64,000 bases of DNA from Streptomyces sp. TS71-3. GTDB lineage: Bacteria; Actinomycetota; Actinomycetes; Streptomycetales; Streptomycetaceae. The stretch's first letter is position 1. Each line of letters begins with the position of its first letter. The notes beneath the pieces are model-generated. The model made no database searches and was not told the DNA's origin. It worked only from the letters and a program-made list of their open reading frames with translations. Below are positions 3,346-64,000 of the stretch, one piece after another. The stretch lies in NCBI RefSeq assembly GCF_018327685.1, contig NZ_BNEL01000003.1, positions 2,480,001-2,544,000 on the forward strand, given 5' to 3'. A program made the translations under genes and the position numbers.

Positions 3346-3455
3346 CGCGGAATTTTCGACCGGCCCAGCCACCCCATATGCTCGGTTGCCATGGCACCGC
3401 CCCAGAGCCCGGATGTACCTCGGGTACGCCCTGCCCCACCGGTACCGGGGGCGCC

Positions 3456-7294: not shown

Positions 7295-7373
7295 CCGCCG
7301 CGGCGGCGGGGGAGGCGCGGCCCGGCGCGGGCACGGCTTACGGGCCGCGCGCCGGGAGTGCTGATAATCGCCC

Positions 7374-8288
7374 ATGGACGACACCTACGGCGCCGAGATC
7401 ACCTTCAGCGACCTGGAGATGTTCCTCGTCTTCAGCAAGACCGAGCACTTCGGCCACACCGCCACGGAACTCGACGTCAGCGTGGCCACCGTGCAGCGCG
7501 GCATCCGCGCCCTGGAGCGCAAGCTCGGCGTGCGCCTCGTGGAGCAGGCCGGCCGGCGCGTGCGCATGCTGCACACCGGGCACATCCTCGTCCGCGAGGC
7601 GCACACCGTGCTGCGCGCACGCCACGACGCCGTGGACACCGTCCGCGCCGAGTCCGGCCTGCCGCACCGCAGGCTGCGGATCGCCCACACCTACTCCCTC
7701 GGCCTCGGGTTCGTCCCCGGCGTGCTCGCCGAACTCCTCCAGGACCACCCGGAACTCCGCTTCCGCTGCTGGCAGGGCCCAGCCACCGACGTCGTCTCGG
7801 CCCTGCTCCACGGGGAGGCGGACGTCGCGTTCACGTCGCTGTCGCCCACCGAGTCGGACATCGTCGTGGAGCCGCTGTTCACCCAGGCCCTGCTGCTGAC
7901 CGTCCCCGCGGACGACCCGCTGGCCGGCAGCGGCACCGTGCGGCTCTCCGAGGTGCAGGGCCGCTCGTTCATAGCGATGGAGCCGGGCTCCAGCAGCCGC
8001 ACCCACATGGTCAACGCCTGCGCACGCGCCGGGTTCATCCCCCGCATCACGGTCGAGGGAAGCGACCTGTTCGTCGTCGAGTCGATGGTGGGCGCGGGCA
8101 TCGGCGTCTCCGTCGTACCGGAGGGCATGGACAACCACCTGCATCCCCGGGTGGCCCGGCTGCCCATCGAGGACCCGGGCTCGGCCGGCCGCACCATCTT
8201 CCTCGCCTACGGACGGGGCGACGCCGCGCACGAGAGCGTCCGCTCCCTCGCCAGGATCGCCAGGACGCACGGCCGGCGCCTCGGATGA
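7374..8288 (+). CDS. LysR-family transcriptional regulator
   Basis: A 304-residue LysR-type regulator. The N-terminal helix-turn-helix (about 10-70) reads ITFSDLEMFLVFSKTEHFG, then LDVSVATVQRGIRALERKLG. An effector-binding periplasmic-protein-like domain follows (about 95-295). It lies directly upstream of, and in the same direction as, the MmgE/PrpD-Tct operon. The gap to that operon contains an inverted repeat at 8303-8331 that is a plausible binding site. I infer it senses the carboxylate handled by the operon; the ligand is unknown. Confidence 0.88.
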   Translation: MDDTYGAEITFSDLEMFLVFSKTEHFGHTATELDVSVATVQRGIRALERKLGVRLVEQAGRRVRMLHTGHILVREAHTVLRARHDAVDTVRAESGLPHRRLRIAHTYSLGLGFVPGVLAELLQDHPELRFRCWQGPATDVVSALLHGEADVAFTSLSPTESDIVVEPLFTQALLLTVPADDPLAGSGTVRLSEVQGRSFIAMEPGSSSRTHMVNACARAGFIPRITVEGSDLFVVESMVGAGIGVSVVPEGMDNHLHPRVARLPIEDPGSAGRTIFLAYGRGDAAHESVRSLARIARTHGRRLG

Positions 8289-8302
8289 TCTTTGCGTCAG
8301 AC

Positions 8303-8331
8303 ACAATGATTGCGGCGTGCGCTGTCATTGT
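8303..8331. promoter_or_regulatory. Inverted-repeat operator before the MmgE/PrpD-Tct operon
   Basis: Perfect 7-bp arms, ACAATGA at 8303-8309 and TCATTGT at 8325-8331, are separated by 15 bp. The site is 33 bp before the first operon gene and 15 bp after the LysR stop codon. Its spacing and dyad symmetry suit a LysR-type or similar dimer. It is AT-rich against GC-rich surroundings, so chance is less likely. Confidence 0.6.
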
Positions 8332-8363
8332 TTCGGCCACCCGTGGCTTCTACCGTCCCGTGC

Positions 8364-9794: not shown

Positions 9795-10492
9795 CCGCCA
9801 CCGAAGACGTCGTCGACTTCGTCCGGAGCACGACCCCGCCGCCCGCCGCACGCGAGTCGGCGACGGCGGAGCTGGCACGGTTCGCCGAGGCCGGCCGCGC
9901 GGGCGCGGAGAGTTCGGCGGTGCGCGCCCTGCGCGCGGCGCTGGGCACCGCGGAGGCCGGCCCCGTGCGGACGGCATGGGTGTCGGCCACCGCCGCGGGC
10001 GCCGGCGCCGAGGCCGGGGCGGACGGCGACGGCGGACCGGAGTGGATCGCGGTCTGCGCCGCCGCCGGCGCGCTGGAAGCCGATCCCGCCCGCGCGGCCG
10101 AGGCCACGGCGCTCGGCTACGCGGTGGCCGAGCACATCGCCACGGCGCTGGGCACCGCGCACACCGACGCGGGCTGGGCCGCCCAGTGCACCGCGGGCGC
10201 GATCGGGGCGGCGGCCGCCGCGGGCCGGCTGCTCGCTCTCGGCGCACTCCCCACGCGCCATCTGCTCGGGCTCGCCGCGACCCAGGCCGCGGGTCTCGCC
10301 GGCGCCCGCGGCACCGACGCCTGGGCCCTGCAACTGGGCAAGACGGCGGCCAACGCCGTGGAGGCGGCGCTGCTCGCGGGGAACGGCTTCACCTCCTCGG
10401 CCGAGCCGCTCGAAGGGCGGCGCGGCCTGTTCGCACTGATGTCCCCGGGCGCCCGCCCGCCACGGGACCGGCTCGGCGCCCACTGGAACTGA
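9791..10492 (+). CDS. Half-length MmgE/PrpD-like protein
   Basis: A 233-residue Ala-rich protein whose start ATG 9791 overlaps the previous stop (ATGA). It shares the family's helical N-domain landmarks (AAQCTAGAIGAAAAAGRLLALG, split here by similarity only; and LGKTAANAVEAALLAGNGFTSS, where full proteins have PGKAA and GFTS). It ends soon afterwards with RDRLGAHW, so the C-terminal lid domain is absent, and the normal His/Asp-rich active-site segment is also missing. It may be a non-catalytic partner of the full-length proteins, or a decaying duplicate. No frameshift is evident and the coupling to its neighbour is intact. Confidence 0.65.
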   Translation: MTATEDVVDFVRSTTPPPAARESATAELARFAEAGRAGAESSAVRALRAALGTAEAGPVRTAWVSATAAGAGAEAGADGDGGPEWIAVCAAAGALEADPARAAEATALGYAVAEHIATALGTAHTDAGWAAQCTAGAIGAAAAAGRLLALGALPTRHLLGLAATQAAGLAGARGTDAWALQLGKTAANAVEAALLAGNGFTSSAEPLEGRRGLFALMSPGARPPRDRLGAHWN

Positions 10493-50811: not shown

Positions 50812-52257
50812 TCAGGCGACCATCGCCCCCGTGTGGGACATGACGTGCTTGATGCGCGTGTAGTCCTCCAGGCTGTAGGACGACAGGTCCTTCCCGTAGC
50901 CGGACTGCTTGAAGCCGCCGTGCGGCATCTCCGCGGCCACCGGGATGTGGCAGTTGATCCAGACACATCCCGCGTCGATCTCCGCGGCCATCCGCATGGC
51001 CCTGTCGTGGGCCCGCGTCCACACCGAGGAGGCGAGGCCGTAGCGTACGTCGTTCGCCCAGCGCACCGCCTCCTCGTCGCCGCGGGACGGCTGCACGGTG
51101 ATCACCGGGCCGAAGATCTCCTCCTGTACGGCCTCGTCGTCCTGCCGCAGGCCGGTCACGACGGTGGGCTCGTGGAAGTAGCCCTCTCCCCTCACCGCGG
51201 AGCCGCCGGTGGTGATGGTGGCGTGGTCGGGAAGCCGGGTCAGGAACCCCTTGACCCGGGAGAGCTGCGTGGGGTTGTTCAACGGCCCGTAGGCGGCGGA
51301 CGGATCGTCCGGGGGACCGGTGCGGGTCCTGGCGGCCTCCCGGGTGAGGGCCTCGACGAAGGTGTCGTGCACCTCGGAGTCGACGATGACCCGGCAGGCC
51401 GAGGCGCAGTCCTGGCCCGCGTTGAAGAGGGCGGCCTCCGCGATGCCGCGCGCCGCGGCGTCGATGTCCGCGTCGGCGCTCACGATGACCGGCGCCTTGC
51501 CGCCCAGTTCGAGGTGGACGCGCTTGACGTCCTGGGCCGCCGTGCCCGCGACCTCCTTGCCGGCCCGGACGCTCCCGGTGATCGAGACCATGTCCGGACC
51601 GGGGTGGGCCACCAGGGAGCGCCCGGTGTCCCGGTCCCCGCACACCACGTTGAAGACGCCGTCCGGCAGGAACTCGGAGGCGAGCTCCGCGAGGGCGGCC
51701 GTGGTGGCCGGCGTCGAGTCGGCGGGCTTGAGGATCACGCTGTTGCCCGCGGCGACCGCCGGGGCGAACTTCCACACCGCCATCATCAGCGGGTAGTTCC
51801 AGGGGGTCACCTGGGCGCACACACCCACCGGCTCCCGCCGCAGCATCGACGTGTGGCCCGGGAAGTACTCCCCGGCCGCCCGGCCCTCCAGATGCCGTGC
51901 GGCGCCCGCGAAGAACCGGATCTGGTCGATCATCGGGCCCATCTCCTCCGAGGAGGTGATGTGCAGCGGCTTGCCGGTGTGCCGCGCCTCCAGCCGGACG
52001 AACTCCTCCGCCCTGGCCTCCAGCGCGTCGGCGATCCGGTGCAGGGCGAGCTGGCGTTCCCCCGGCGTGGTGCGCCGCCACCGTTCGAACCCGGCGCGCG
52101 CGGCCTTCGCCGCACGGTCGACGTCCTCGGGGCCCGACAGCGCGGCCGTCCCCGACGGCTTGCCGGCGGACGGGTCGAGAAGGTCCGTGGTGCGGCCCGA
52201 CGCCGCGGCCGCCGGGGATCCCGCGATGAAGTTGCGCACGCTCTCGTCGTCGTTCAC
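50812..52257 (-). CDS. NAD(P)-dependent aldehyde dehydrogenase (aminoaldehyde-type)
   Basis: A 481-residue aldehyde dehydrogenase. GTG 52257 overlaps the EctD-like stop (GTGA), so the two are coupled. Cofactor and active-site motifs: VTPWNYPLMMAVWK (about residue 145), LELGGKAPVIV with the general-base Glu (about 250) and the nucleophile Cys in NAGQDCASACR (about 285). The sequence resembles gamma-aminobutyraldehyde/betaine-aldehyde types. Given the copper amine oxidase two genes upstream, I infer it oxidises the aldehyde made by that enzyme to an acid. It ends the long leftward operon at a terminator. Confidence 0.92.
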   Translation of the reverse strand: MNDDESVRNFIAGSPAAAASGRTTDLLDPSAGKPSGTAALSGPEDVDRAAKAARAGFERWRRTTPGERQLALHRIADALEARAEEFVRLEARHTGKPLHITSSEEMGPMIDQIRFFAGAARHLEGRAAGEYFPGHTSMLRREPVGVCAQVTPWNYPLMMAVWKFAPAVAAGNSVILKPADSTPATTAALAELASEFLPDGVFNVVCGDRDTGRSLVAHPGPDMVSITGSVRAGKEVAGTAAQDVKRVHLELGGKAPVIVSADADIDAAARGIAEAALFNAGQDCASACRVIVDSEVHDTFVEALTREAARTRTGPPDDPSAAYGPLNNPTQLSRVKGFLTRLPDHATITTGGSAVRGEGYFHEPTVVTGLRQDDEAVQEEIFGPVITVQPSRGDEEAVRWANDVRYGLASSVWTRAHDRAMRMAAEIDAGCVWINCHIPVAAEMPHGGFKQSGYGKDLSSYSLEDYTRIKHVMSHTGAMVA

Positions 52258-53168
52258 ACCGTCCCCCTCGGGGTGACGGGGGTGAAGTCGTGCTTGGCGA
52301 TGTGCTCCGGGCGGGGCTGGGGCGCCGCGTACGGCTCGCGCAGCGTGTTGTCGACGCTGTTGAAGACGACGAACACGTTCGAGCGCGAGTACGGGGTGAT
52401 GTTCCCGTTGGACCCGTGCATGCAGTTGGAGTCGAAGATGGTCGCCGAGCCCGCGGGGCCGGTGAACTGCTCGATGCCCCGCCCCTCGGCGAGTTCGGTG
52501 ACGGACTCCGTGTCCGGCATGCCGATGGCGACCTTGTGGGTGCGCAGCGAGTTGCGGTGGTGGTCCTTCGGCGTCTCGCCGACGCACGGCACGTACGTCC
52601 GGTGCGAGCCCGGAATGATCATCAGGCTGCCGTTGTACGGGTAGTTCTCCGTGAGCGCGATGGACACGCTGACCGCGCGCGGGGTGGGCATCCCGTCCTC
52701 GGCGTGCCAGGTCTCGAAGTCGGAGTGCCAGTAGAACGGCCCACCGCCGAAGCCGGGCTTGTAGTTGACGCGGCTCTGGTGGACGTAGACCTCCGAGCCG
52801 AGGATCTGCCGCACCGGCCCGAGCACCCGCGGATCCCGTACGAGATCCCGGAAGACACCGCTGATGAGGTGCACGTCGAAGATCGAGCGCACCTCCTGCG
52901 AGTTCTCCTCGATGACACTGAGGTCGCCGGCCCGTATCTCCTCGTCGGCCGCGAGGACGCCGATCTCCTCGGTCAGCCTCGACACGTCGGCCGCGCTGAC
53001 CAGCGCCTCGTCGTTGTGGTATCCGCGCTCGTCGAACCCGGCCAGCGCCCGGTCGGACAGCGGCCCGTCCGCCGGGGCGCCGTACACCACCGGATCGTGG
53101 CGGGGCACGGCGGCGGTCCGCTCCGGAACGCGGGTGCGGTACGGGTCTGTCAGGACGGCGGAGTTCAT
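52254..53168 (-). CDS. Ectoine hydroxylase-like Fe(II)/2-oxoglutarate dioxygenase (EctD/PhyH)
   Basis: A 304-residue phytanoyl-CoA-dioxygenase-family hydroxylase. ATG 53168 follows AAGAAGGGATCGC. It carries the EctD signature: FYWHSDFETWHAEDGMP with iron ligands His148 and Asp150, LMIIPGSHRTYV, and the third ligand His251 in NCMHGSNG. By sequence I would call it EctD, which makes 5-hydroxyectoine. However, ectA, ectB and ectC are not near. It sits between an amine oxidase and an aldehyde dehydrogenase in a peptide-type locus, so it may hydroxylate another cyclic amidine or amino acid. Its leader carries a perfect tandem repeat. Confidence 0.85.
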   Translation of the reverse strand: MNSAVLTDPYRTRVPERTAAVPRHDPVVYGAPADGPLSDRALAGFDERGYHNDEALVSAADVSRLTEEIGVLAADEEIRAGDLSVIEENSQEVRSIFDVHLISGVFRDLVRDPRVLGPVRQILGSEVYVHQSRVNYKPGFGGGPFYWHSDFETWHAEDGMPTPRAVSVSIALTENYPYNGSLMIIPGSHRTYVPCVGETPKDHHRNSLRTHKVAIGMPDTESVTELAEGRGIEQFTGPAGSATIFDSNCMHGSNGNITPYSRSNVFVVFNSVDNTLREPYAAPQPRPEHIAKHDFTPVTPRGTV

Positions 53169-53177
53169 GCGATCCCT

Positions 53178-53215
53178 TCTTCCGATGTGGTGCGTCTCTT
53201 CCGATGTGGTGCGTC
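53178..53215. repeat. Perfect 19-bp tandem duplication in the ectD-like leader
   Basis: TCTTCCGATGTGGTGCGTC is repeated head to tail at 53178-53196 and 53197-53215, starting 10 bp upstream of the EctD-like start. Looser GTGTGG/GTGGTG words continue to about 53270. It could alter ribosome access or simply be slippage. Confidence 0.85.
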
Positions 53216-53275
53216 CGGTTTGCAGTGTGGTCCGTTCGGTGTGGTGCACGTCGCTGTGTGGCCCGTGCCGTTCGC

Positions 53276-55285
53276 TCAGTGGCCGGCGTGGCCGGTGTGT
53301 CCCCCGCCCCGGGCCCCTTCTCCGGCTCCGGCGGCGTGCGATGCGCAGGCGTCCGGGGGCGGCACGTCCAGCGCCGGGTTGCCGTCGAAGAAGCCGTTCG
53401 GGCGGAGGCTGAAGCCGGTGGTGACGACCGGCATGGCGGGCCAGTCCTCGGCGCGCACGACGTGGTGCTCCCCGAAGGTGTGCCAGAGCACGACGTCGCC
53501 GTCGGCGAGCGGGCGGTCGGCGGCGGCGTAGGCGGGCAGGCCGTCGCCGCCCCTGCTCTGGTTGGGATAGTCGCCGGCCGCGTACATCTGGGCCGGGTCG
53601 TAGGCGGTCACCCACAGGTGCCCGTACACGAACCGGGCCCGGTGCCAGGCCTCGCTGCCCTCCGGCTGCATGGGCAGCAGCCCCGATCCGGGGACGAGTT
53701 TGTACGACACGGGCTCCCCGACGCCGTTGCGGCTCCCGGAGTTGACGATGCTCCAGAACCGTCCGGTGGCGGGGTCGGCCAGGCGCTGTTGCGCGGTGGA
53801 CTCCGAGGCGAGGGGGGTCGCCCGGGTGCGCCACGCGTTCCCGCGCGGGTTGTGCTCGTCCATCGGCAGCGGCTCGGAGTCGACCTCGTACACCGTGTTC
53901 TTCTCGCCGTCGACGCTCATGTCCAGCCGCATGTTGAAGAAGTGCTGGTGGTGCGGGCCGTAGAGGCCGGGCGCCACGACGGCGCCGTGGCCGGGGGGCA
54001 CCTCCGAGTAGGCGCCGGTGGAGATCATGCCGGTGAGCTTGATCTCGAACTGCACGGTGCCGTCGAGGTAGAGGTACCAGAAGTAGCCGTACTGGTAGTT
54101 GCCGAGCACGGCGAACGACGAGACGACCAGGCGCCGCTGCCGCCGCGTGACGACGCTGCCGGTGCGGAAGTCGGTGTGCTTCCAGCCGACCCCCACGTCC
54201 TCCTCGTGCATGCAGATCGCGTTCGGGAGGGTGACCGGTTCGCCGCTCTGGTCGTGCACCACGGCGTCGAGGTAGTGGATCTCGCCGAGGCAGTCGCAGC
54301 CCAGCTCCAGCGCGTTCACCATGAAACCGGCGCCGTACTCGCCCTCGTCGAACGCGTTCTTGCGGTGGTGGGTGAGGCCGGGATCGCCGTACGGGGTGTA
54401 CATCTCGGCGAGCGAGGCGCGGTGGACGACGGGGCGCACCCGCCCGCCGTCCCGGTAGCCGACCTGGTGCAGGACCAGGCCCTCCCGGACGGTGAAGCCG
54501 ATGCGGAAGGACCACTTCTGCCACTTGACCGCATACCCGTCCACCGTGAAGCTCGGTCCCTGCGGCTGGGTGATGTCGATGGGGCGCAGGCCCTCCCGCT
54601 GCCTGGTGACACCCGGCCAGTTGCCCTCCGGCTCCCACAGCTGCGGGTCGTAGTTGCCGCTGAGTTCGGGCAGCGGTACCGGGCCGTGGTCGGTGACGTC
54701 GAGCACCTCCATGCTGTCCAGGTCGACCAGGACTTCGAGGTTCTCGACCGGCCTGGCGTACCCGTTGTCCCCCGGGTGGGCCCGTACGAAGGTCAGCGGG
54801 CAGCACAGCCGCCTGCCCGTCGCGTCGTCGAGGTCACCGGCGAAACCGGCGGGCCAGGCGTCCACCATCGCCAGCGAGAAGTCCTGCACGCCGCGCCGGC
54901 GCATGGCCTCCTGCCAGCGCCCGTCCCGGCGCACCGCCTCGTCGCACTGGCCGAACTCCTCCTCGGTGATCGCCGGCTGGGCGCCGGGACGGTGGGCGAA
55001 CTCGGCGAGCTCCATACGGCTGAGGGAGACGACCGCCTCGTACGTGCGCCGCACCGCCCGGTCCCGCAGGACCATGGCGACCTCGCGGTCGGGTACCTCA
55101 CCCTCCTGCTCGTACCGGGTGAGGGCGCTCTTCACCGGTTCCCTGAGGGAGATCATGACGAACCGCACGTCGGGAGTGATCTCGCGTGCCCGCTTCAGCA
55201 CCTCCACCGCCGTCCGGATCTCCTCCGGTGACAGGGGTTCCAGCGGATGCTTCGTGTGGGTCCGCTCCTCGGCCAGTACGGACAT
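53276..55285 (-). CDS. Copper amine oxidase (primary-amine oxidase, TPQ-type)
   Basis: A 669-residue enzyme that oxidises a primary amine to an aldehyde, NH3 and H2O2 using copper and topaquinone. ATG 55285 is used; a longer frame upstream lacks support. The catalytic base is Asp313 in AFDEGEYGAG. The TPQ precursor is Tyr397 in GNYQYGYFWY (consensus N-Y-D/E-Y). Copper His446 and His448 lie in HHQHFFNMRLD. The C-terminus adds a His/Gly-rich tail (GGGHTGHAGH). There is no signal peptide, so it acts in the cytosol. With the downstream aldehyde dehydrogenase it forms an amine-to-acid pair within the operon. The substrate is inferred to be a pathway amine. Confidence 0.92.
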   Translation of the reverse strand: MSVLAEERTHTKHPLEPLSPEEIRTAVEVLKRAREITPDVRFVMISLREPVKSALTRYEQEGEVPDREVAMVLRDRAVRRTYEAVVSLSRMELAEFAHRPGAQPAITEEEFGQCDEAVRRDGRWQEAMRRRGVQDFSLAMVDAWPAGFAGDLDDATGRRLCCPLTFVRAHPGDNGYARPVENLEVLVDLDSMEVLDVTDHGPVPLPELSGNYDPQLWEPEGNWPGVTRQREGLRPIDITQPQGPSFTVDGYAVKWQKWSFRIGFTVREGLVLHQVGYRDGGRVRPVVHRASLAEMYTPYGDPGLTHHRKNAFDEGEYGAGFMVNALELGCDCLGEIHYLDAVVHDQSGEPVTLPNAICMHEEDVGVGWKHTDFRTGSVVTRRQRRLVVSSFAVLGNYQYGYFWYLYLDGTVQFEIKLTGMISTGAYSEVPPGHGAVVAPGLYGPHHQHFFNMRLDMSVDGEKNTVYEVDSEPLPMDEHNPRGNAWRTRATPLASESTAQQRLADPATGRFWSIVNSGSRNGVGEPVSYKLVPGSGLLPMQPEGSEAWHRARFVYGHLWVTAYDPAQMYAAGDYPNQSRGGDGLPAYAAADRPLADGDVVLWHTFGEHHVVRAEDWPAMPVVTTGFSLRPNGFFDGNPALDVPPPDACASHAAGAGEGARGGGHTGHAGH

Positions 55286-55355
55286 CGCTCTGCACCGTCC
55301 TTCTCTCGGTTCGTGGTGGTGTGGTGGGAGGCGGAGGGATGGGACCGCCGCAGGG

Positions 55356-56153
55356 TCAGCGCCGCGCTGCCCCCGAGCCGGCGGTGCGGGCGAGGGCGAG
55401 GTCGTCTCTGAGGGCCGCGGTGACCGCCTGCCGGTTCCCCGCCAGGTAGAAGTGGCCACCGGAGAAGACCCTGGGGGGCATCGGCCCGGCGGTGCTGAGG
55501 GCGCCCCATCCGGCCGCGGCGGCGTCGGGCCGCACGCTGTCGTCCCGCGCCCCGTGGTAGGTGCGCACGGCGCACGGCAGCGCGGGGCCCGTACCGGCGA
55601 AGCGGTAGGTCTCCGCCACGGCGTAGTCGGCGCGCAGCCGGGGCAGCACGAGCTCCAGCAGCTCCGGTTCCTCCAGGGTCTCCGGTGTGGTCCCCCCGAT
55701 GGCGAGGACGGCCTGGAGGAACTGATCGTCGGGCAGCAGGTGCCGGTCCCGTCCCGCGGCGGCCGCGGCGGCGGGCGGCGGGCTGCCCGAGGCCACCAGC
55801 AGGGACGGTGGCCGGCCGAGCAGGGTCAGCTCCCGGGCGGCCTCGAAGGCCACGACGGCGCCGAGGCTGTGCCCGAAGAGGCAGTACGGCACGTCCGCGA
55901 GCGGCAGCAGCCCCTGCGCGAGGGCGCCGGCCAGTGCCGGCATGCCGGTCAACGGCGGTTCGCCGTACCGCTTGCCGCGGCCCGGCAGCACCACGGGAAG
56001 CACCTGGGCGGTGTCCGCCAGGGGATCGGCCCACGTCTGGTAGGTGCCGGTGTCGCCGCCCGCGTGCGGCAGGCAGAACACGCGGGGCCGCCCGTCCGGT
56101 TCGAGTCGGCCGGGAGGCACGGCCACCCAGCGGGTCGCGGGGTCCTCGGTCAT
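55356..56153 (-). CDS. Type II thioesterase of the NRPS-like locus
   Basis: A 265-residue alpha/beta-hydrolase of the external thioesterase (GrsT/TEII) type. ATG 56153 overlaps the preceding stop (ATGA). Motifs: FCLPHAGGDTGTY (about 25), the nucleophile GHSLGAVVAFE (about 95) and a late GGHFYL with the catalytic His (about 228). It clears misloaded groups from the PCP, or could release the product because the synthetase has no thioesterase domain. It is coupled directly to the adenylation-PCP gene. Confidence 0.92.
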   Translation of the reverse strand: MTEDPATRWVAVPPGRLEPDGRPRVFCLPHAGGDTGTYQTWADPLADTAQVLPVVLPGRGKRYGEPPLTGMPALAGALAQGLLPLADVPYCLFGHSLGAVVAFEAARELTLLGRPPSLLVASGSPPPAAAAAAGRDRHLLPDDQFLQAVLAIGGTTPETLEEPELLELVLPRLRADYAVAETYRFAGTGPALPCAVRTYHGARDDSVRPDAAAAGWGALSTAGPMPPRVFSGGHFYLAGNRQAVTAALRDDLALARTAGSGAARR

Positions 56154-59100
56154 GGCCTTCCGCCTCCCGACGCCGGCGCGAGGGCGGTGGCCAGGGCCCG
56201 GACCGAGGGGGAGGCGAGGAAGACCTCCAGGGGCACGTCGCCCCCGGTCTCCCGGCGGGCCCGGGTGAGGAAGCGCGCGGCCTGAAGGGAGCTCCCGCCC
56301 AGCGTGAAGAAGTCGTCCTCGGGCCGGACCTCCTCGCACCCGAGCACCTGCGCGGCCAGGTCGAGCAGCGCGGCCTCGACGTTCCTCGCCGCCCGCTCGC
56401 CGCCGGCCCGCCCGCCGGAGGCCCCTTCGCCGGCGTCCTGCCCGTCCCGGCGGCAGTCCGGACCGGTGGGTCCGGTGGGTCCGGTGGCCGGACGGTGCCA
56501 GGACACCGGTGGCAGGGCGTCCACGTCCACCTTGCCGTTGGGCGTGCTCGGCACGGCTTCGAGGAACGCGACGGCGGCGGGCACCATGTAGTGCGGGAGC
56601 CGTTCTTCGAGGTGCCGCAGCAGTTCCGGGGCGTCGGGTGTCCGGCCGTCGGCGGGTACCACGTACGCGGCGATCCGCTCGTCCACGGGGCGTACGACCG
56701 CGGTGCGCACCGCCGGGTGGCGTTCCAGCTGGTTCCTGATCTCGCCCAGTTCGATCCGGTAGCCGTTGATCTTGACCTGGTCGTCGGTGCGCCCGCCGAA
56801 CAGCAGCACGCCGTTCGGGTCCTGCCGAACCATGTCGCCCGTGCGGTACAGGACGCCGGCGGGGGCGGCAGGAGTGTCGGGGGTGCCCGAGGGGGTCGGG
56901 GTGTTCGGAGGGGGCGTGGCCTCCGAGGTGCGCGTGGTGTTCGTGAGCTCCCTGGTGTCCGTGGCACCCGTGGCACCCATGGCGCTTGTGGTACCTGAAG
57001 TACCCGAGGTGCCGGTGGCGTCCGAGAACGGGTCCGGGACGAAGTTCTCCGCCGTCAGCTCCGGCCGCTCCCTATAGCCCCGGGCGATGCCCGCGCCGCC
57101 GACCCACAGCTCGCCCGGGAAGCCCGGTGGCACGGGCATGCCGTACTCGTCGACCACGTGGACGCGCACGTTCGCCAGCGGCCTGCCGATGGGCACCGAC
57201 CCGTCGTGGGCGGCACTGTCGTGGCCGGCACCGTCGTCCGGGCCGGCGGGATCCGTGGCGCAGGCCCAGTGGGTGACGTCGATGGTGCATTCCGTCGGCC
57301 CGTAGAAGTTGTGCAGGCCGGCCCCGAGCCCCGCGGCGGCGAAGCGCCGGCAGAGCTCCGGTGAGAGGGTCTCCCCACCGCAGAAGACATACCGCAGTCC
57401 GGCGACGTCGCGCAGCCCCGGTCCCCTCTGTTCGAGCAGCAGGTCCAGGAGCGACGGCACGCAGGCGAGCACGGTGATCCGGTGGTCCACGAGGTCGCGG
57501 ACCAGCAGCCGCGGGTCCTGGTCGGCGCCGGCCCGTGCCAGCACGAGGCGCGCTCCGGACACCAGCGGTGCGAAGAGCTCCCACACCGAGATGTCGAACC
57601 CGAGCGAGGTGTGCTGGAGGACGGCGTCGCGTTCCGTGAGGGGGAAGGCGCGGGCGTCCCAGGCGAGCCGGTTGGTGAGGTTGCGGTGTTCGACCTCGAC
57701 GCCCTTGGGCAGGCCCGTGGAGCCGGACGTGTAGATCAGGTAGGCCAGGTCGGACGGTGCCGTACTCGTCGGCATCGGCGTCGGCGTCGGCATCGGTTCC
57801 GGTACCGGCCCCGGGGACCGTGCCGTCCCCGGCGGTTCACCGACGCGTCCGTCCGGGGGCGCCTCCTCGCCGCCCCCGTCCAGGGGGACGACCGTGACGC
57901 CGGCCGAGGTGAGGGCCGGGGGCCGGCCGTGTGCGAGGACGAGTTCCGCCCCGCTGTCGCGCAGCATGAACTCGATGCGCTCCGGCGGATGGTCGGGGTG
58001 GAGCGGCAAGTAGGCGCCGCCCGCCTTGAGTACCGCGAGGACGGCCACGACGGTGGCGGTGCTCCGCTCGCCCCAGACCCCGACCGGGCTCTGCGGCGAC
58101 AGTCCGCGGGCTCGCAGCTCGTGGGCCAGCCGGTCCGCCCGCTCGTCCAGCTCGCGATAGGTCGTCCGCGTGTCGCCGGACTCCACCGCGACGCGATCCG
58201 GCCACCGGCGGGCCGCGCTCTCCACCATGCCGTGCACGCTCACGGATGCCGGGTCCTCCCCGGAGGGCGTGGTCAGCTCCGTAGCCGCCGGGTCTCCGGC
58301 GGGGGCCCGGTGCCAGGGCGAGCGGGCGCGGGACAGCGCCGGTCCCTGTGCCGTACGCGGGCGGCCGATGGCGCGGAGCGGGTCCTCGCCTGCCTCGCCC
58401 GTCACGCGGGGGAGACGGACCCGCGCCGGGCTGGTCTCCTGTGCTCCGGTTCCGGGCGCGAGTCCGGCACCGGTCTCGGACGGGTGGTCCTGGCGTGTGA
58501 TGTGTGGCGCGGAAGGGAGCAGTGCACGGCGGTAGGCCACCGCCGGCACGCTGTCCGAGGTGAGCCCGGAGGCGCCGTGCGTCTGGAGGCAGTGCAGGGC
58601 CGTCTCGCGAACCGTCCGGGCGACGGCGTCGGCCGTGGCCGCGGCGCGCCCGAAGGCGTCGGGGCCGGGCTCCCGCTCGTCCAGGGCGAGCAGTTGCTCG
58701 GCCACCGACAGCCGCAGCCCTTCGAGCCGGCTGCGCGCCGCGGCCAGCGGCTGGCTCACCGCCTGGTGGTGACCGACGGGAGCGCCGAACTGGCGTCGTG
58801 CGCGCGCCCTTCGCGCCGCCGCGGCCACGGCGGTGAGGCCGACCCCCAGCAGGTGCGCCGACCGCAGCAGGACGGTCGTCGTACCCGGGTGCAGGGCGCA
58901 GGGGTTCTGAGCGGCCGGTTCTCCGCCGGCCTCGGCGGGGGCGGCCGGCTCCTCCGGTACGTGGTCCTGCGCACCGCCATCCTGCGCACCGCCGTCCTGC
59001 GTCCCGCCATCCCGCCGGACCGTGAAGCGCACGGTGACGCGCTCTTCCCCCAGCCGGCTGTGCCAGGTCGTCCCGGTGCCGGTGTCCCGTAGCGGCGCGA

Positions 59101-59749
59101 TGCCGAGGTGGGCCGTGTCGGTGCCCACCAGGACCAGCAAGTCCGGTGGCGGACCGGGAACGTCCACGGCGACACGGAACGGGGACGCCGCGGCGGCGCC
59201 GCGGTACGCGCCCGAGCCCGGAGTGCCGTTGGACGGGTCCGTGCACGTCTCCGCCGTGCTCCCACCGGCGGCCGGAGGCTCCGAGGCGGTCATGGCGAGG
59301 GGACACACGCGTGCCGTGACCTGCCCGGACAGCAGGGCGGCGGTGGTGTCTCCCGCCGGGTCCAGGGCGGCTACGAGGGGGGCGGCCAGCAGGTCGTCCA
59401 GGACCTCGCCGGGCAGCAGGGCCTTGCCGGCCTCTTCCGCGAGCAGCTGGGCCTCGCGGCGGGCTAGGCCCCGGCCCTGACGCGACACCGGCAGCAGTGC
59501 ACCGGTGAAGTCCCGGTCCGCCATGGCCCGGCGGACGCGTGCGACGTCCGGCGCGTACGGTGCCGGGGTGTGCGGTGCCGGGGTGTGCGGTGCCGGGGTG
59601 TGCGGCGCGAGTGCGTCCGCATTTGGTGCCGGACGCCCCTCATCCGGTGGGCCCGCACCCGTGTACGGCCGAAGCCCGTCGCCGGCCTCGGACAGCAGGT
59701 CACGGAACTCCTCCCGGAGCTGGTGGTGCCATGACGCGAGTAGGGGCAT
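56150..59749 (-). CDS. Fused acyl-CoA-dehydrogenase-like / adenylation / PCP protein
   Basis: A 1,199-residue fusion. Residues 1-430 resemble the C-terminal half of an acyl-CoA dehydrogenase: GVGLTAVAAAARRARARRQFGAP (in part), then HHQAVSQPLAAARSRLEGLRLSVAEQL. It lacks the N-terminal flavin/substrate motif, as partner subunits do. An adenylation domain (about 505-1030) follows: LIYTSGSTGLPKG, FDISVWELF, NFYGPTECTID, YRTGDMV and NGKVDVDAL. A PCP (about 1105-1180) has Ser1154 in TLGGSSLQA. No condensation or thioesterase domain is present. It would load one amino acid and present it to a built-in or adjacent dehydrogenase. Low-complexity inserts interrupt the domains. My hand-read specificity code (D-I-W-F-H-F-V-I, uncertain) matches no standard code I know. 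Confidence 0.85.
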   Translation of the reverse strand: MPLLASWHHQLREEFRDLLSEAGDGLRPYTGAGPPDEGRPAPNADALAPHTPAPHTPAPHTPAPYAPDVARVRRAMADRDFTGALLPVSRQGRGLARREAQLLAEEAGKALLPGEVLDDLLAAPLVAALDPAGDTTAALLSGQVTARVCPLAMTASEPPAAGGSTAETCTDPSNGTPGSGAYRGAAAASPFRVAVDVPGPPPDLLVLVGTDTAHLGIAPLRDTGTGTTWHSRLGEERVTVRFTVRRDGGTQDGGAQDGGAQDHVPEEPAAPAEAGGEPAAQNPCALHPGTTTVLLRSAHLLGVGLTAVAAAARRARARRQFGAPVGHHQAVSQPLAAARSRLEGLRLSVAEQLLALDEREPGPDAFGRAAATADAVARTVRETALHCLQTHGASGLTSDSVPAVAYRRALLPSAPHITRQDHPSETGAGLAPGTGAQETSPARVRLPRVTGEAGEDPLRAIGRPRTAQGPALSRARSPWHRAPAGDPAATELTTPSGEDPASVSVHGMVESAARRWPDRVAVESGDTRTTYRELDERADRLAHELRARGLSPQSPVGVWGERSTATVVAVLAVLKAGGAYLPLHPDHPPERIEFMLRDSGAELVLAHGRPPALTSAGVTVVPLDGGGEEAPPDGRVGEPPGTARSPGPVPEPMPTPTPMPTSTAPSDLAYLIYTSGSTGLPKGVEVEHRNLTNRLAWDARAFPLTERDAVLQHTSLGFDISVWELFAPLVSGARLVLARAGADQDPRLLVRDLVDHRITVLACVPSLLDLLLEQRGPGLRDVAGLRYVFCGGETLSPELCRRFAAAGLGAGLHNFYGPTECTIDVTHWACATDPAGPDDGAGHDSAAHDGSVPIGRPLANVRVHVVDEYGMPVPPGFPGELWVGGAGIARGYRERPELTAENFVPDPFSDATGTSGTSGTTSAMGATGATDTRELTNTTRTSEATPPPNTPTPSGTPDTPAAPAGVLYRTGDMVRQDPNGVLLFGGRTDDQVKINGYRIELGEIRNQLERHPAVRTAVVRPVDERIAAYVVPADGRTPDAPELLRHLEERLPHYMVPAAVAFLEAVPSTPNGKVDVDALPPVSWHRPATGPTGPTGPDCRRDGQDAGEGASGGRAGGERAARNVEAALLDLAAQVLGCEEVRPEDDFFTLGGSSLQAARFLTRARRETGGDVPLEVFLASPSVRALATALAPASGGGRP
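59561..59605. repeat. Three perfect 15-bp repeats inside the fusion gene
   Basis: TGCCGGGGTGTGCGG occurs three times head to tail, encoding APHTP pentapeptides near residue 50 of the fusion protein. A fourth degenerate unit (APYAP) precedes them on the plus strand. The length keeps the reading frame. Confidence 0.9.
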
Positions 59750-59750
59750 G

Positions 59751-61145
59751 TCACTCTCCCTCCCAGGGGTCGCCGCCGTCGAGCAGTTCCGTGGCGACGG
59801 CGTCGAGTTGCATCGGGGAGGTGCCGGCCGCGAGCGTCAGACCGGGTGCCTCCGCCAGGGCGACGGCGAGGTCGGGGAAGGCCTCGGCGAACGGAAGATC
59901 CTCCTGGGCGCCGGAAGCGACGGCGTCCGGACCGGTGACGGTGCCGGCCGTGCTCGCCTCGCCCGCCGCGCCGGCCGCGCCCACTGCACCTGCCGGGTCA
60001 GCGCCGGCCGTGTCAGCCCAGGCCGGGGCGCCGAGAAGCTGTCCTGCCAACAGGGCCACGCGTTGCGCGAGTTCGCTGGCCCACCACTTGGCACCCGCGG
60101 CCGCGGCGCCGTTCTGCCGTCCGGTGTCCAGGTCCTGCACGGCGCGCCAGGACAGCAGGCGTGCGGCGCGCAGTTCGGCGTCGAGTTCGTCGAGCGCGTG
60201 CCGTTTCGTCTCCTCTTCCAGCCGGCCGGACGCGTCGAGCGCGCTGACCAGGTTGTCGAACCACCTGCGTGCCCGCCCGGCGAAGCAGATGCCCGTACGT
60301 TCGAGGCCGAGCGCCTCCGTGATCAGAGGCCAGCCACCGCCGGGGGCTCCCACCAGCGCGTCCGGCCCGGTCTCGACACCGTCGAGGCGTACCCGGAAGA
60401 GCTGCTCGGGGTTGAGGGTGTCGAGGGGGTCGACGTGTACGCCGGGCGTGTCGAGCGGCACGATGAAGAGGCTGAGCCCCGCGTGCTTGCCACCGCTGCG
60501 TGCACCGGCCCGGCCGCCGGATTCCGCGTGGCCCCCCGGCGCCGCTTTCGCACCGCGTTCCGCCCGGCCTCCGAGCCCCGCCCGGTCCGCCGGAGTCTCG
60601 CTCCCGCCCGGCGGCGGTACGGCGCGTGCGGCGCAGACGGCGAACTCCGCTTCCGCGGTGCGCCCGTTCCAGACCTTGACCCCGTCCAGCCGCCAGCCTT
60701 CTCCGGCCGGCTCCGCCGTGGTGGTGAGCGCCGCCAGGTCGCTCCCGGCGTCGGGCTCGGTGTAGAGGACGGAGAAGAGGCTTCTGCCCTCGGCCATCGC
60801 CGGCAGGTGGCGGCTTCGCTGTTCCCCGGTGCCGCCGGTGAGGAGGGAAGCGCCGGCGTTGTCGATCGTGTTCACCCGCGCGCTGTCCGGTACGCCGGCG
60901 AGTGCGAGTTCCTCGGCGACCACGGCCGCGGCGTAGGGACCCGCTCCCAGCCCTCCGTACCGTTCGGGCCAGTGCGGTGCCAGCCACCTGCGTGCGCCCA
61001 GCTCCCGGTAGACGGCAGCGGCGTGGGGCATGCCGTGCTCGGCCGCAGCCCAGCAGCGGCGCGTCTCGTCGCGTAACCGCGGTTCGGACAGCAGGCTCCT
61101 GACGGCCTTGCGCAGTCCTTCGTGCGTGTCGGGTGAACCCTGCAC
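59751..61145 (-). CDS. Acyl-CoA dehydrogenase family protein
   Basis: A 464-residue flavoprotein of the acyl-CoA dehydrogenase family. GTG 61145 follows a G-rich site (GGGGG). It has the N-terminal helical domain (ELGARRWLAPHWPERYGGLG), the flavin/substrate motif TEPDAGSDLAAL (about 125) and the beta-domain KVWNGRTAEAEF. The C-terminal helical domain is interrupted by Ala/Gly/Thr-rich stretches near 185-230 and 380-415. Its stop is 1 bp before the fused dehydrogenase-A-PCP gene. The two may form a heteromeric dehydrogenase that desaturates an aminoacyl-S-PCP, as homologues do to prolyl-PCP in pyrrole formation. That role is inference. Confidence 0.88.
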   Translation of the reverse strand: MQGSPDTHEGLRKAVRSLLSEPRLRDETRRCWAAAEHGMPHAAAVYRELGARRWLAPHWPERYGGLGAGPYAAAVVAEELALAGVPDSARVNTIDNAGASLLTGGTGEQRSRHLPAMAEGRSLFSVLYTEPDAGSDLAALTTTAEPAGEGWRLDGVKVWNGRTAEAEFAVCAARAVPPPGGSETPADRAGLGGRAERGAKAAPGGHAESGGRAGARSGGKHAGLSLFIVPLDTPGVHVDPLDTLNPEQLFRVRLDGVETGPDALVGAPGGGWPLITEALGLERTGICFAGRARRWFDNLVSALDASGRLEEETKRHALDELDAELRAARLLSWRAVQDLDTGRQNGAAAAGAKWWASELAQRVALLAGQLLGAPAWADTAGADPAGAVGAAGAAGEASTAGTVTGPDAVASGAQEDLPFAEAFPDLAVALAEAPGLTLAAGTSPMQLDAVATELLDGGDPWEGE

Positions 61146-61269
61146 GGAAGAACCCCCAAACTCTCGTGAGTGGTGACCTCGAACCTTGTGAACAACCCTG
61201 TGAACGGCTGGGCATTCCGTACCTCAGTGCCCACATATCCCGTTGTGTGGCGGAGGCATGCAATCCGAG

Positions 61270-61298
61270 TATGTACGCCCGGCCCGACGGCGTGTCAA
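61270..61298 (-). promoter_or_regulatory. Near-consensus promoter of the leftward operon
   Basis: Reading leftward: -35 TTGACA (complement of 61293-61298), 17-bp spacer, -10 TACATA (complement of 61270-61275). Initiation near 61263 would give a leader of about 120 bases before the acyl-CoA dehydrogenase start. It is one of two divergent promoters in the 691-bp gap 61146-61836. Confidence 0.65.
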
Positions 61299-61353
61299 CT
61301 CAGGGCGGTAAGCGACAAAAACGCTGTACGTGTAACCCAGGAGGCGAAAAAGA

Positions 61354-61524
61354 ATGGCGAGTTACCCTTCGGGGTTCCCGCAAACATCCCTGAATAAAGA
61401 ATCTTGGAATTCGGGTTTCACCGTACGGTCACGGATGTGCCTGCTCCCGCCTCACCCCAGTTCACGCCTCTGTGGCCGGTCACAGGCCGGCTTGATCGGG
61501 GTAAGGGGCACATGCGCAAGTTGA
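61354..61524 (+). CDS. Possible 56-residue small ORF with a strong ribosome site
   Basis: ATG 61354 follows AGGAGG (spacing 9) in an A-rich leader and runs 56 codons to TGA 61524. The product begins MASYPSGFPQTSLNKESW and ends GVRGTCAS. It has no signal peptide and only two Cys. Its composition (Ser, Asn, Lys) is unlike the chromosome average. Codon bias is not clearly Streptomyces-like, so it may be non-coding. If real, it is transcribed toward the arginine deiminase gene. It might be a leader peptide or a precursor. Confidence 0.25.
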   Translation: MASYPSGFPQTSLNKESWNSGFTVRSRMCLLPPHPSSRLCGRSQAGLIGVRGTCAS

Positions 61525-61549
61525 CATGGATATGCGGCACACCTAGCGT
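61521..61549 (+). promoter_or_regulatory. Near-consensus promoter for the arginine deiminase arm
   Basis: Forward -35 TTGACA (61521-61526), 17-bp spacer, -10 TAGCGT (61544-61549). Initiation near 61556 gives a leader of about 280 bases before ATG 61837. The rest of the gap (61550-61836) has no gene I can support. Confidence 0.65.
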
Positions 61550-61836
61550 CATAAATCGCTACTCGAATGCGGCAGAGCGCTGGATGCGCAGTTCTTGATC
61601 TCACCCGGATCCGTCATCTGCGCCGTTACGGTGTTCTGGTCCGCGTATTCGCACGTCGTCGCAGTCTCTTGATCGAAATTGTTCGGTGTGCTGATCCACG
61701 CGCCGATTGTCACGACCGCCGCGGGAATCCAGCACCGACGCCTCCTCAAAGCTGCGCATGGCACGGCCACGCGTGATTTCCCACCTCTGCGTGCCGTCCA
61801 CATCTGTCTATGCCGTCCACGTCCGGAAGGCGCCTC

Positions 61837-63240
61837 ATGCAGCCGTTACAAGCCGGCAGTTCCTCCCTTTCCGCTCCGCGAACGGACACCGAAGCGCCAT
61901 CCCCACCGCCTACGGGGCGCCTCGCCGTGCCCCGTCAGGCGGGCGGAGTCGCCCCAGCCCGGCGGCAGGTGGCCGGAGCCGAACCGGCGGAACCGGCGCC
62001 TGTGCCGACGGAGGCCGAGCAGACGCTGTGCTCGGCTTTTCACGGCGCCCGCGTGACCAGCGAGGTCGGCTCGCTGCGCCGGGTGCTCGTGCACCGGCCC
62101 GGCGAAGAACTGGAGCGGCTGCTCCCGGACAACCACCGGGACCTGCTGTTCGACGACATCCCCTGGCTCCACGCCGCCCAGGCGGAGCACGACACCTTCA
62201 CCTCCCTGCTGCGCGGCGAGGGCGCCGAGGTGGTCGAACTGACCACCGTGCTCGCCGCCGCGCTGGCCGACCCCGGGGCCCGCGAGGAACTGGCCACCGC
62301 GGCAGCGGACGGAGGGCGGCTCGGCCGGCCGCTGGCCGCGGCCGTGCGGCAGCACCTGCTGGAAGCCGAGGCGGGGCCTCTGGCGCGGCGTCTGCTCCGG
62401 GGTATCACCCTCGGCGAACTCCAGGAGTGGGCCCCGCACCGGACCCGGTACGCGCTGGCGGCATCCACCAGGCCACCCGAGTGGTTCGTCCTCCCGCCCC
62501 TGGTCAACTCCCTCTTCGTGCGCGACAGCAGCAGCTGGATCGACGGTGTCTGCGGCACCCACCACATGTCGTCGGCGGCCCGCTTCTTCGAGGGCCGGCA
62601 GTTGAGGACCGTGATGCGGGTCGCGGGCGCCGACGATGTCTGGGCCGGGGCCACGCCGCCCGTCGCCATGGAAGGCGGCGACCTGCTGCTGCTCGGCGAG
62701 GGCTGCGTCCTCATCGGCATCGGGGAACGCACCACCCCGGCGGCCGCCGAGGCGTTCGCGCAGCGGCTCCTCACCACCGGCGCGGCACGCCGGGTGTTCG
62801 GGGTGATCATGCCGCGGGAGCGGCAGAGCATGCACCTCGACACCGTCATGACGATGGTGGACCGGGAGACCTTCCTCGTCAGCAACGTGCACGAACAGCG
62901 CTGCCACTACGTCGAACTCTCCCTGGCCCGGCAGGGCGAGGTCAGGGCCGTGCCGCTCGACGACCCGTTCGCCTCCTTCGCCGGGGCCCTCGGCCTGCCC
63001 GCCCTGCGGCGGGTGGAGACCGGCGGCGACGACTTCGGGACCCGCAGGGAGCAGTGGAGCGACTCGGCGAACGTCCTGGCCCTGCGCCCCGGAACGGTCG
63101 TGGCCTACGACCGCAACACGGTGGCCAACCAGCGGCTCGACGAGGCGGGCATCGAGGTGCTCGTCATTCCCAGCTCGGAGCTCATCCGCGGCAGGGGCGG
63201 CCCGCACTGCCTGACCTGCCCGCTGCTGCGAGACCGCTGA
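61837..63240 (+). CDS. Arginine deiminase family protein with early TTA codon
   Basis: A 467-residue guanidino-group-modifying enzyme that resembles arginine deiminase (arginine to citrulline and NH3). ATG 61837 follows GGAAGG (spacing 6); ATG 61810 is a weaker option. Codon 4 (61846-61848) is TTA, so translation should need the bldA tRNA. The first 75 residues are Pro/Ala-rich. The catalytic domain follows: SEVGSLRRVLVHRPG, LLFDDIPWLHAAQAEHD, EGGDLLLLG, the His in SMHLDTVM, and the nucleophile Cys458 in GGPHCLTCP near the end. The first Cys motif is usually GPRCM, so Arg to His is a deviation. It may supply citrulline or modify a guanidino product. Confidence 0.85.
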   Translation: MQPLQAGSSSLSAPRTDTEAPSPPPTGRLAVPRQAGGVAPARRQVAGAEPAEPAPVPTEAEQTLCSAFHGARVTSEVGSLRRVLVHRPGEELERLLPDNHRDLLFDDIPWLHAAQAEHDTFTSLLRGEGAEVVELTTVLAAALADPGAREELATAAADGGRLGRPLAAAVRQHLLEAEAGPLARRLLRGITLGELQEWAPHRTRYALAASTRPPEWFVLPPLVNSLFVRDSSSWIDGVCGTHHMSSAARFFEGRQLRTVMRVAGADDVWAGATPPVAMEGGDLLLLGEGCVLIGIGERTTPAAAEAFAQRLLTTGAARRVFGVIMPRERQSMHLDTVMTMVDRETFLVSNVHEQRCHYVELSLARQGEVRAVPLDDPFASFAGALGLPALRRVETGGDDFGTRREQWSDSANVLALRPGTVVAYDRNTVANQRLDEAGIEVLVIPSSELIRGRGGPHCLTCPLLRDR

Positions 63241-63354
63241 ACGCGCGTAACGGCAGCGGACGGCACCGGACCGGACCACCGGGCGAGCACGAGGAATCAC
63301 AGGAAATCCCAAGGAATCACAAGGAATGCAGGCAAACACAGAAAAAGGAGCATC

Positions 63355-64000
63355 ATGACACTCTCACCCCAACGCGCCGCCCACGACGGCCGGTCCACGG
63401 CCACGATCACGCCGCCGCCCGACGAGCAGAAGGACACCGTCCGGTCGGTCTACCAGCGCGTCGCCGAGGAGTACGACGAGCGGATTCCCGGCGCCGGACC
63501 CTCGGACGACATGTTCACCGAGGCGGAGCGTGACTTCCTGCTGAAGCAGATCCGCCCGGGGGAGGACGTCCTCGACGTGGGATGCGGAACCGGACGGTTC
63601 ACCGTCCCGATGGCGGCCGCGGGAGCGCGGGTGAGCGGGCTGGACATCTCCGCCCCCATGCTGGACGTGGCGCGGCGCAAGCTGGAGGCCGAGAACGTCA
63701 CGGCCGACCTGCGGGAGGGGGACATGGCGAGGATGCCGTTCCCCGACGCGTCGTTCGACACGGTCAGCAGCATGCTGGCGCTGATGCACCTGCCGCTTGA
63801 GGACCGCCCCGCGGTGTTCGCCGAGATCCAGCGGGTGCTGCGGCCCGGCGGAAGGATGCTGCTGGGCGTGAAGAACTCCCTCTTCGAGCAGCTCTTCAAG
63901 GGCGACCGGTTCGCCTCGGTGGACGTCACCGACGTCGAGGACAAGCAGCTGCGGTTCACCGGGACCCGCAGCGGCGAGGAGTACACCGCGCCCTGGTACA
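63355..64000 (+). CDS. SAM-dependent methyltransferase, C-terminus cut by window edge
   Basis: At least 215 residues of a class I methyltransferase. ATG 63355 has a strong site, AAAAAGGAGCATC. The SAM motif is VLDVGCGTGRFTVPMA (about residue 72-87), the acidic strand VSGLDISAPML, and the post-I motif region DASFDTVSSMLALMHL. The reading frame stays open to the window end. It is 114 bp after the arginine deiminase and in the same direction, so it is probably part of the same transcript and tailors the product. The acceptor atom is unknown. Confidence 0.88.
   Translation, partial: MTLSPQRAAHDGRSTATITPPPDEQKDTVRSVYQRVAEEYDERIPGAGPSDDMFTEAERDFLLKQIRPGEDVLDVGCGTGRFTVPMAAAGARVSGLDISAPMLDVARRKLEAENVTADLREGDMARMPFPDASFDTVSSMLALMHLPLEDRPAVFAEIQRVLRPGGRMLLGVKNSLFEQLFKGDRFASVDVTDVEDKQLRFTGTRSGEEYTAPWY

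What the first reader, a model, noticed from the sequence alone, without database searches (positions are those of the whole stretch)
50812..64000. Candidate new NRPS-type pathway linking deiminase, amine oxidase and EctD-like hydroxylase
Divergent arms bring together a single A-PCP, two dehydrogenase parts, thioesterase, copper amine oxidase, EctD-like hydroxylase, aldehyde dehydrogenase, arginine deiminase and methyltransferase. Every step points to a modified amino acid derived from arginine or a related amine. No condensation domain is present. I know no described locus with this set. The right edge is cut, so more genes may exist.
Basis: inference. Interest (0 to 1): 0.78.

Follow-up and report, generated by a model that had tools for sequence, protein, structure and literature searches.

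The report
Orphan cluster for a modified amino acid
A group of ten Streptomyces genes, kept together in a second species, looks able to load one amino acid onto a carrier, put a double bond into it, release it and trim it further; the product is unknown and may start from arginine.

Summary
Of 87 genes called in 120.9 kb, exactly ten (g39-g48, 50,812-66,091, running past the right edge) have reciprocal best hits in one 31-kb contig of another Streptomyces with unrelated flanks. The core is a Fic32-33-type pair of acyl-CoA-dehydrogenase subunits (one with the conserved Glu, one with the flavin motif and fused to the A-PCP), a type II thioesterase and a methyltransferase; Embleya keeps only this core. 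Deiminase, copper amine oxidase, EctD paralogue and aldehyde dehydrogenase are an add-on, with a MarR regulator and an EamA transporter. Likeliest job: load one amino acid, desaturate it on the carrier, release, tailor and export it. 'Every step points to arginine' is too strong. Unexpected: both cluster amine oxidases read V-x-x-N-Y-Q where 8 of 8 relatives examined read T-x-x-N-Y-[D/E], and the EctD paralogue keeps the ectoine-hydroxylase signature beside a separate canonical EctD. Nine searches of an open-access library showed no description of this set. New variant of a known kind.

The parts
50812..52257 (-). g39: aldehyde dehydrogenase, aminobutyraldehyde-dehydrogenase subfamily; overlaps g40 by 4 bases
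   Evidence: PF00171 527 bits; NF010000 684 bits over cut-off; 72% identical reciprocal best hit in G541
52254..53168 (-). g40: EctD-family Fe(II)/2-oxoglutarate hydroxylase paralogue
   Evidence: TIGR02408 407.9 bits over cut-off; canonical EctD elsewhere in the genome; signature kept; 70% reciprocal best hit in G541
53276..55285 (-). g41: copper amine oxidase with unusual V-L-G-N-Y-Q at the TPQ site
   Evidence: PF01179 499 bits; NF008559 899 bits; best solved relative phenylethylamine oxidase; motif comparison; 74% reciprocal best hit in G541
55356..56153 (-). g42: type II thioesterase, GHSLG motif; overlaps g43 by 4 bases
   Evidence: PF00975 139 bits; motif; reciprocal best hits 48% in G541 and 46% in G395
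56150..59749 (-). g43: fusion of acyl-CoA-dehydrogenase-like subunit (ACAD2), adenylation domain and peptidyl carrier protein; no condensation domain
   Evidence: PF00441, PF00501, PF13193, PF00550; nine other fusions among the 120 listed hits; code DIWAFGFIDK; reciprocal best hits 47% in G541 and 45% in G395
59751..61145 (-). g44: acyl-CoA-dehydrogenase subunit ACAD1 with the conserved Glu, Fic32-33-type
61146..62001 (.). 856-bp divergent promoter region between the two arms
   Evidence: no palindrome with arms of 7 bases or more and gap up to 8 in this region or in those of G541 and G395; only three scattered shared 10-mers, no clear common operator
62002..63240 (+). g45: arginine-deiminase-family protein, paralogue of a second deiminase gene elsewhere in the genome; start uncertain by about 51 bases
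   Evidence: PF02274 286 bits; TIGR01078 340.5 bits against 476.3 for the other copy, both below the cut-off 489.1; catalytic motifs kept; 59% reciprocal best hit in G541
63355..64000 (+). g46: class I SAM-dependent methyltransferase, cut by the window edge (ends at 64,224); followed outside the window by g47 MarR (64,501-65,235) and g48 EamA transporter (65,225-66,091), which belong to the cluster
   Evidence: PF13649/PF08241; 76% identical in G541 and 74% in G395; MarR (58%) and EamA (51%) also reciprocal best hits in G541

Best explanation
A ten-gene pathway (50,812-66,091) that makes and exports one small non-proteinogenic amino acid. (1) The A domain of g43 activates one alpha-amino acid and loads it on its own PCP (inferred; the Asp at the start of the code and the PCP serine are seen). 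(2) ACAD1 (g44, with the Glu) and ACAD2 (the N-terminal part of g43, with the flavin-binding motif) form one heteromeric flavin dehydrogenase that desaturates the PCP-bound amino acid (inferred from the subunit pattern and the match to the Fic32-33 complex; the fusion would place the flavin subunit next to the carrier). (3) The type II thioesterase g42 releases the product (inferred). (4) The methyltransferase g46 belongs to the core; its step is unknown. (5) In this lineage an add-on module (deiminase g45, amine oxidase g41, EctD paralogue g40, aldehyde dehydrogenase g39) supplies the precursor or tailors the product: guanidine to urea, amine to aldehyde to acid, and a hydroxylation; the order is not known. 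(6) EamA exports it and MarR regulates (inferred from family). Arginine or citrulline as precursor is the leading guess, not shown.
Against: No chemistry was tested. PigA-type prolyl-PCP dehydrogenases lie only 5 Z units lower (39.2 against 44.4), and the other heteromeric entries (6wy8/6wy9, 4x28) are not among the 50 rows shown there. ACAD2 is a weak match to known structures (best 36.9 bits), and ordinary acyl-CoA dehydrogenases score as high as or higher than the partner chains (4l1f_A 36.9, 6fah_C 36.4, 7szv_A 35.2 against 6wy8_A 35.1, 4x28_D 32.8, 8hk0_C 27.0). The A code differs in 2 of 12 relatives (DAWTFGLIDK), so the substrate may vary. No decarboxylase or aminotransferase is among the ten genes to make an obvious substrate for the amine oxidase, whose cofactor motif is altered. 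A PCP-bound product could also serve the NRPS gene about 29 kb beyond the cluster.
Confidence: 0.6

Rival explanations
1. The core makes an unsaturated building block that is handed to another assembly line, for example the NRPS gene about 29 kb beyond the right end of the cluster, instead of a free exported amino acid.
For: An NRPS with condensation, A, PCP and TE domains lies at about 95.3-101.2 kb of the extended region; free-standing A-PCP units often supply other lines (recalled).
Against: No gene of that NRPS cluster has a reciprocal best hit in the 31-kb G541 contig; the cluster has its own thioesterase and an EamA transporter gene.
Confidence: 0.15
2. Two unrelated neighbours: an amine-catabolic operon (amine oxidase, hydroxylase, aldehyde dehydrogenase) beside a small NRPS-like cluster.
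For: Two amine-oxidase relatives on Rhodococcus plasmids sit beside permease genes; Embleya has the core without these genes in the 34 kb examined.
Against: All ten genes recur together in G541 with different flanks; the left arm has short overlaps and gaps (4-base overlaps, gaps of 1 to 107 bases) consistent with one operon.
Confidence: 0.1
3. A proline-type pathway: prolyl-PCP is oxidised to pyrroline or pyrrole, as by RedW and PigA.
Against: Both are far below the cut-offs of 650 and 500; two complementary subunits instead of one enzyme; the Fic32-33 complex is closer.
Confidence: 0.07
4. The deiminase (with or without the methyltransferase) is a self-protection or regulatory gene against an arginine-like product, not a biosynthetic step.
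For: The genome has another deiminase gene that fits the arcA model better (476 bits), and the core exists in Embleya without a deiminase in the 34 kb examined.
Against: The catalytic motifs are intact and the gene lies first in the divergent arm with the core methyltransferase, in both genomes that have the whole set. This does not exclude the rival.
Confidence: 0.15

Closest known systems
Fic32-33 complex of Streptomyces ficellus (PDB 8hk0; ficellomycin pathway by recall)
   Different: Only 42% identity over the aligned chain A; here the second subunit is fused to A-PCP; the ficellomycin genes themselves were not compared
Heteromeric actinobacterial acyl-CoA dehydrogenases (6wy8/6wy9 Tcur3481-Tcur3483; 4x28, FadE26-27 by recall)
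   Same: Glu on one subunit and flavin-binding motif on the other (recalled), each matched by the corresponding part
   Different: Those act on CoA thioesters in degradation (recalled); here the partner is an amino-acid carrier protein. They are not among the 50 structural rows shown
PigA, RedW and ColB1 (carrier-tethered aminoacyl dehydrogenases)
   Same: Acyl-CoA-dehydrogenase fold; the ColB1 entry title states assembly-line-tethered cysteine dehydrogenation
   Different: Single-gene enzymes (recalled); cut-offs for RedW and PigA models not reached
Ectoine hydroxylase EctD
   Same: Over the TIGR02408 cut-off, signature kept, 56% identical to the canonical EctD at C1:4801006
   Different: Not among ectABC genes; a second copy in the two genomes with the whole set, which also have the canonical one
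Arginine deiminase ArcA
   Same: PF02274, catalytic motifs
   Different: Below the arcA cut-off (340.5 against 489.1), next to a methyltransferase, separate from the better arcA match, which is itself below the cut-off at 476.3

Membership tests
Fic32-33-type heteromeric acyl-CoA dehydrogenase | Catalytic-Glu subunit closest to 8hk0 chain A | tested here: met
Fic32-33-type heteromeric acyl-CoA dehydrogenase | Partner subunit with flavin-binding R-R-Q-F-G and without the Glu | tested here: met
   R-x-Q-F-G invariant in 10 of 10 fusions (second Arg nearly so); L-[L/M/S]-R where ACAD1 has x-E-R, by my reading of the alignments
Fic32-33-type heteromeric acyl-CoA dehydrogenase | Partner subunit closest to 8hk0 chain C | tested here: inconclusive
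   8hk0_C is reached (25.7 and 27.0 bits) but ordinary acyl-CoA dehydrogenases score higher
Fic32-33-type heteromeric acyl-CoA dehydrogenase | The two subunits form a complex | not testable with these tools
   needs co-purification
Modular NRPS elongation cluster | Condensation domain | tested here: not met
   No PF00668 among the ten proteins scanned
Ectoine hydroxylase EctD | TIGR02408 curated cut-off and EctD signature F-x-WHSDFETWHxEDGMP (signature recalled) | tested here: met
   407.9 bits against 336.5; alignment
Ectoine hydroxylase EctD | Lies with ectABC | tested here: not met
   No ectABC-type family among the ten proteins; neighbours are amine oxidase and aldehyde dehydrogenase
Ectoine hydroxylase EctD | Hydroxylates ectoine | not testable with these tools
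   needs enzyme assay
Arginine deiminase ArcA | TIGR01078 cut-off | tested here: not met
   340.5 against 489.1
Arginine deiminase superfamily (PF02274) | Domain and catalytic Asp, Glu, His-x-Asp, Cys motifs (roles recalled) | tested here: met
TPQ copper amine oxidase | Curated model and three copper His (ligands recalled) | tested here: met
   NF008559 899 bits against 651; HQH and the later His align with phenylethylamine oxidase
TPQ copper amine oxidase | T-x-x-N-Y-[D/E] cofactor site (consensus recalled) | tested here: not met
   V-L-G-N-Y-Q in both cluster enzymes; T and D/E in 8 of 8 others examined and in phenylethylamine oxidase
L-prolyl-PCP dehydrogenase (RedW, PigA) | NCBIfam cut-offs | tested here: not met
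   89.7 against 650; 56.9 against 500

The most novel reading that the evidence does not exclude
The pathway is a carrier-bound route to a cyclic guanidine or urea amino acid: arginine (or citrulline) is desaturated on the PCP, the guanidine or urea nitrogen adds to the double bond to give a six-membered ring like that of capreomycidine, and the EctD paralogue hydroxylates that ring because it resembles ectoine. Ring formation would then use a dehydrogenase instead of the hydroxylase and PLP enzyme of viomycin biosynthesis (recalled).
Probability: 0.1. Interest if true: 0.8.

Novelty: new variant of a known kind. Interest (0 to 1): 0.5.

Why it matters
The cluster joins a two-subunit dehydrogenase that probably works on a carrier-bound amino acid, with one subunit fused to the loading module, to an EctD paralogue and an amine oxidase with a changed cofactor site. 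It is compact (about 15 kb), was found whole in two of the genomes examined and in part in Embleya, and can be moved to a host whole. It would test whether EctD-type enzymes serve natural-product pathways, how Fic32-33-type pairs work on carrier-bound amino acids, and whether a copper amine oxidase can form its cofactor at V-x-x-N-Y-Q.

Tried and rejected
PLSDB gave no ACAD1 match at 1e-40. In the genus of G395 the ACAD1 profile matched 1 of 4 genomes at 1e-120, G395 itself. Structure names did not identify the methyltransferase's reaction. No palindrome with arms of 7 bases or more was found in the promoter regions of three genomes, and no clear common operator. Nine paper searches showed no description of this gene set; I saw only the listings and the printed starts of abstracts, and opened no paper. 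In the fold comparison the heteromeric entries 6wy8/6wy9 and 4x28 are not among the 50 rows shown. Considered and rejected as the main reading: the proline-to-pyrrole route (far below the RedW and PigA cut-offs) and plain arginine catabolism (a better arcA match lies elsewhere in the genome). The contig-length link was made on 21 ACAD1, 9 fusion and 29 deiminase rows that I chose from capped listings by identity; equal length of the longest contig is indirect, the 31,382-base pair is probably G541's own species (G541's contig is 31,352 bases and its fusion reads like P0054), and contigs of 1.1, 2.0 and 9.2 Mb show no closeness. Of the distant matches (41 rows, 37, some shared) I fetched 12 as wide regions; two of the 12 (L174, L177) showed no ACAD2-like match and the match in L173 (3e-6) is in the ACAD1-like ORF itself.
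Full report
WHAT WAS CHECKED. The window is bases 2,480,001-2,544,000 of contig C3 of a 9.79-Mb genome. I extended it to the right by 56.9 kb and called 87 genes in the joined 120.9 kb with a codon-usage script. Past the window edge follow a MarR regulator and an EamA transporter. No condensation domain was reported in these ten proteins.

IS IT ONE UNIT? ACAD1 alone found no close relative in 246 genomes of the genus other than the window's own (best other 7e-42). A profile of ACAD1 relatives (A1) was then run on 392 genomes of the genus, and on 297 and later 335 of the family (the draws overlap). Strong matches (E <= 1e-115) occurred in 1 of 392, 3 of 297 and 3 of 335 genomes: the window's own, G541 (same genus) and G395 (Embleya by its contig length of 1,125,638, which equals that of P0134; inference). 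In G541 ten genes, exactly g39-g48, are reciprocal best hits of the 87 (47-76% identity); no flanking gene is. G541 has transposase-like genes on its flanks (proteins read by eye), and its MarR and EamA genes lie beside the aldehyde dehydrogenase instead of beside the methyltransferase. So the set is conserved while its surroundings are not. In G395 only thioesterase, fusion, ACAD1 and methyltransferase are reciprocal best hits, beside a RidA-family gene and another EamA gene. RidA proteins act on enamine or imine intermediates (recalled), which fits a dehydroamino acid. G395 has no EctD over the cut-off anywhere (best 27 bits).

THE ADENYLATION DOMAIN. The ten-residue code, read by motif, is DIWAFGFIDK in 10 of 12 proteins and DAWTFGLIDK in 2 of 12; G541 and P0054 are probably the same protein, so the 12 are not all independent. 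By recall the second resembles a glutamine code. This does not fix the substrate.

THE DEIMINASE AND METHYLTRANSFERASE. The deiminase scores 340.5 bits on the arcA model (cut-off 489.1); another copy in the genome scores 476.3, also below it. The catalytic motifs align with solved arginine deiminases. In Nonomuraea gerenzanensis a 54% methyltransferase lies about 3 kb from a 43% deiminase, with a YqcI/YcgG protein, a GNAT and a MarR gene. In G243 a 72% methyltransferase lies in a different NRPS cluster with an amino-acid kinase and a carbamoyltransferase. The methyltransferase is rare: 2 of 322 genus genomes at 1e-80, namely G541, from which the query came, and G243; 1 of 394 class genomes at 1e-60, the window's own. 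Contig lengths tie deiminase to ACAD1 in four listed pairs and to the fusion in two; one of the six is probably G541's own species and three contigs exceed 1 Mb, so this is co-occurrence, not closeness.

THE ADD-ON ENZYMES. The EctD paralogue is 56-57% identical to three canonical Streptomyces EctDs and 69% to that of G541 over the alignment. Where the two cluster proteins agree and five canonical ones are invariant, 88 positions are the same and 7 differ. G000 and G541 both also have a canonical EctD. The amine oxidase resembles phenylethylamine oxidase, but both cluster enzymes read V-L-G-N-Y-Q at the cofactor site; 8 of 8 other oxidases examined have T and D or E there (these 8 are from the 12 listed of 58 records), as does phenylethylamine oxidase. 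The Thr and Asp/Glu are part of the textbook TPQ consensus (recalled).

HOW IT PROBABLY WORKS. Load one amino acid on the PCP, desaturate it with the split flavin dehydrogenase, release it by the thioesterase, methylate at an unknown step, and, in this lineage, deiminate, oxidise an amine to an acid and hydroxylate; export by EamA. Shown: gene content, subunit pattern, conserved set. Inferred: every reaction, their order, and the substrate.

COMPARED WITH WHAT IS KNOWN. It works like Fic32-33 and other carrier-tethered dehydrogenases, and ACAD1 belongs by sequence and model with the Fic32-33 type; ACAD2's place there and complex formation are not settled. The fusion and the set of tailoring genes differ from what I could find. 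A claim of novelty rests on nine searches of an open-access library (listings and starts of abstracts), in which subscription papers are missing.

Noticed in passing
window 53276-55285 (g41) and L163:13817-15796: The copper amine oxidases of this cluster and of G541 read V-x-x-N-Y-Q at the TPQ site, against T-x-x-N-Y-[D/E] in 8 of 8 others examined; whether the cofactor forms is unknown.
   Followed up: partly
L191 (Streptomyces sp. CA-256286 plasmid p65_CHABEC, locus 1-9900): ectA and ectB lie with a free-standing PCP, an adenylate-forming enzyme, a holo-ACP synthase and lysA, plus a gene annotated ectoine hydroxylase (52% to the window EctD); no ectC is listed in the stretch, which ends within ectA and whose gene table may be incomplete. 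It may be a carrier-bound ectoine-like pathway.
   Followed up: no
L003:3292-19173 (21-37 kb right of the window edge): Another cluster: PvcA-like protein, two adenylation enzymes (one with KR and PCP), MFS exporter and an NRPS with two condensation-domain stretches and TE.
   Followed up: partly
G243:C1, L181/L182: An NRPS cluster with the same methyltransferase family, an ArgB-like kinase, a carbamoyltransferase, and a run of A domain, acyl-CoA dehydrogenase, TrpB-like PLP enzyme and small PCP (the run read by eye).
   Followed up: no
L184:14950-20829 (Nonomuraea gerenzanensis): Methyltransferase, deiminase, YqcI/YcgG protein, GNAT, MFS and MarR genes together: a possible relative of the deiminase-methyltransferase arm; no A or PCP relative of g43 was matched in the 30.8-kb stretch.
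   Followed up: partly
L176:8106-10163: In one distant relative both acyl-CoA-dehydrogenase profiles match a single called ORF of 685 aa, so the pair may also exist as one fused protein.
   Followed up: no
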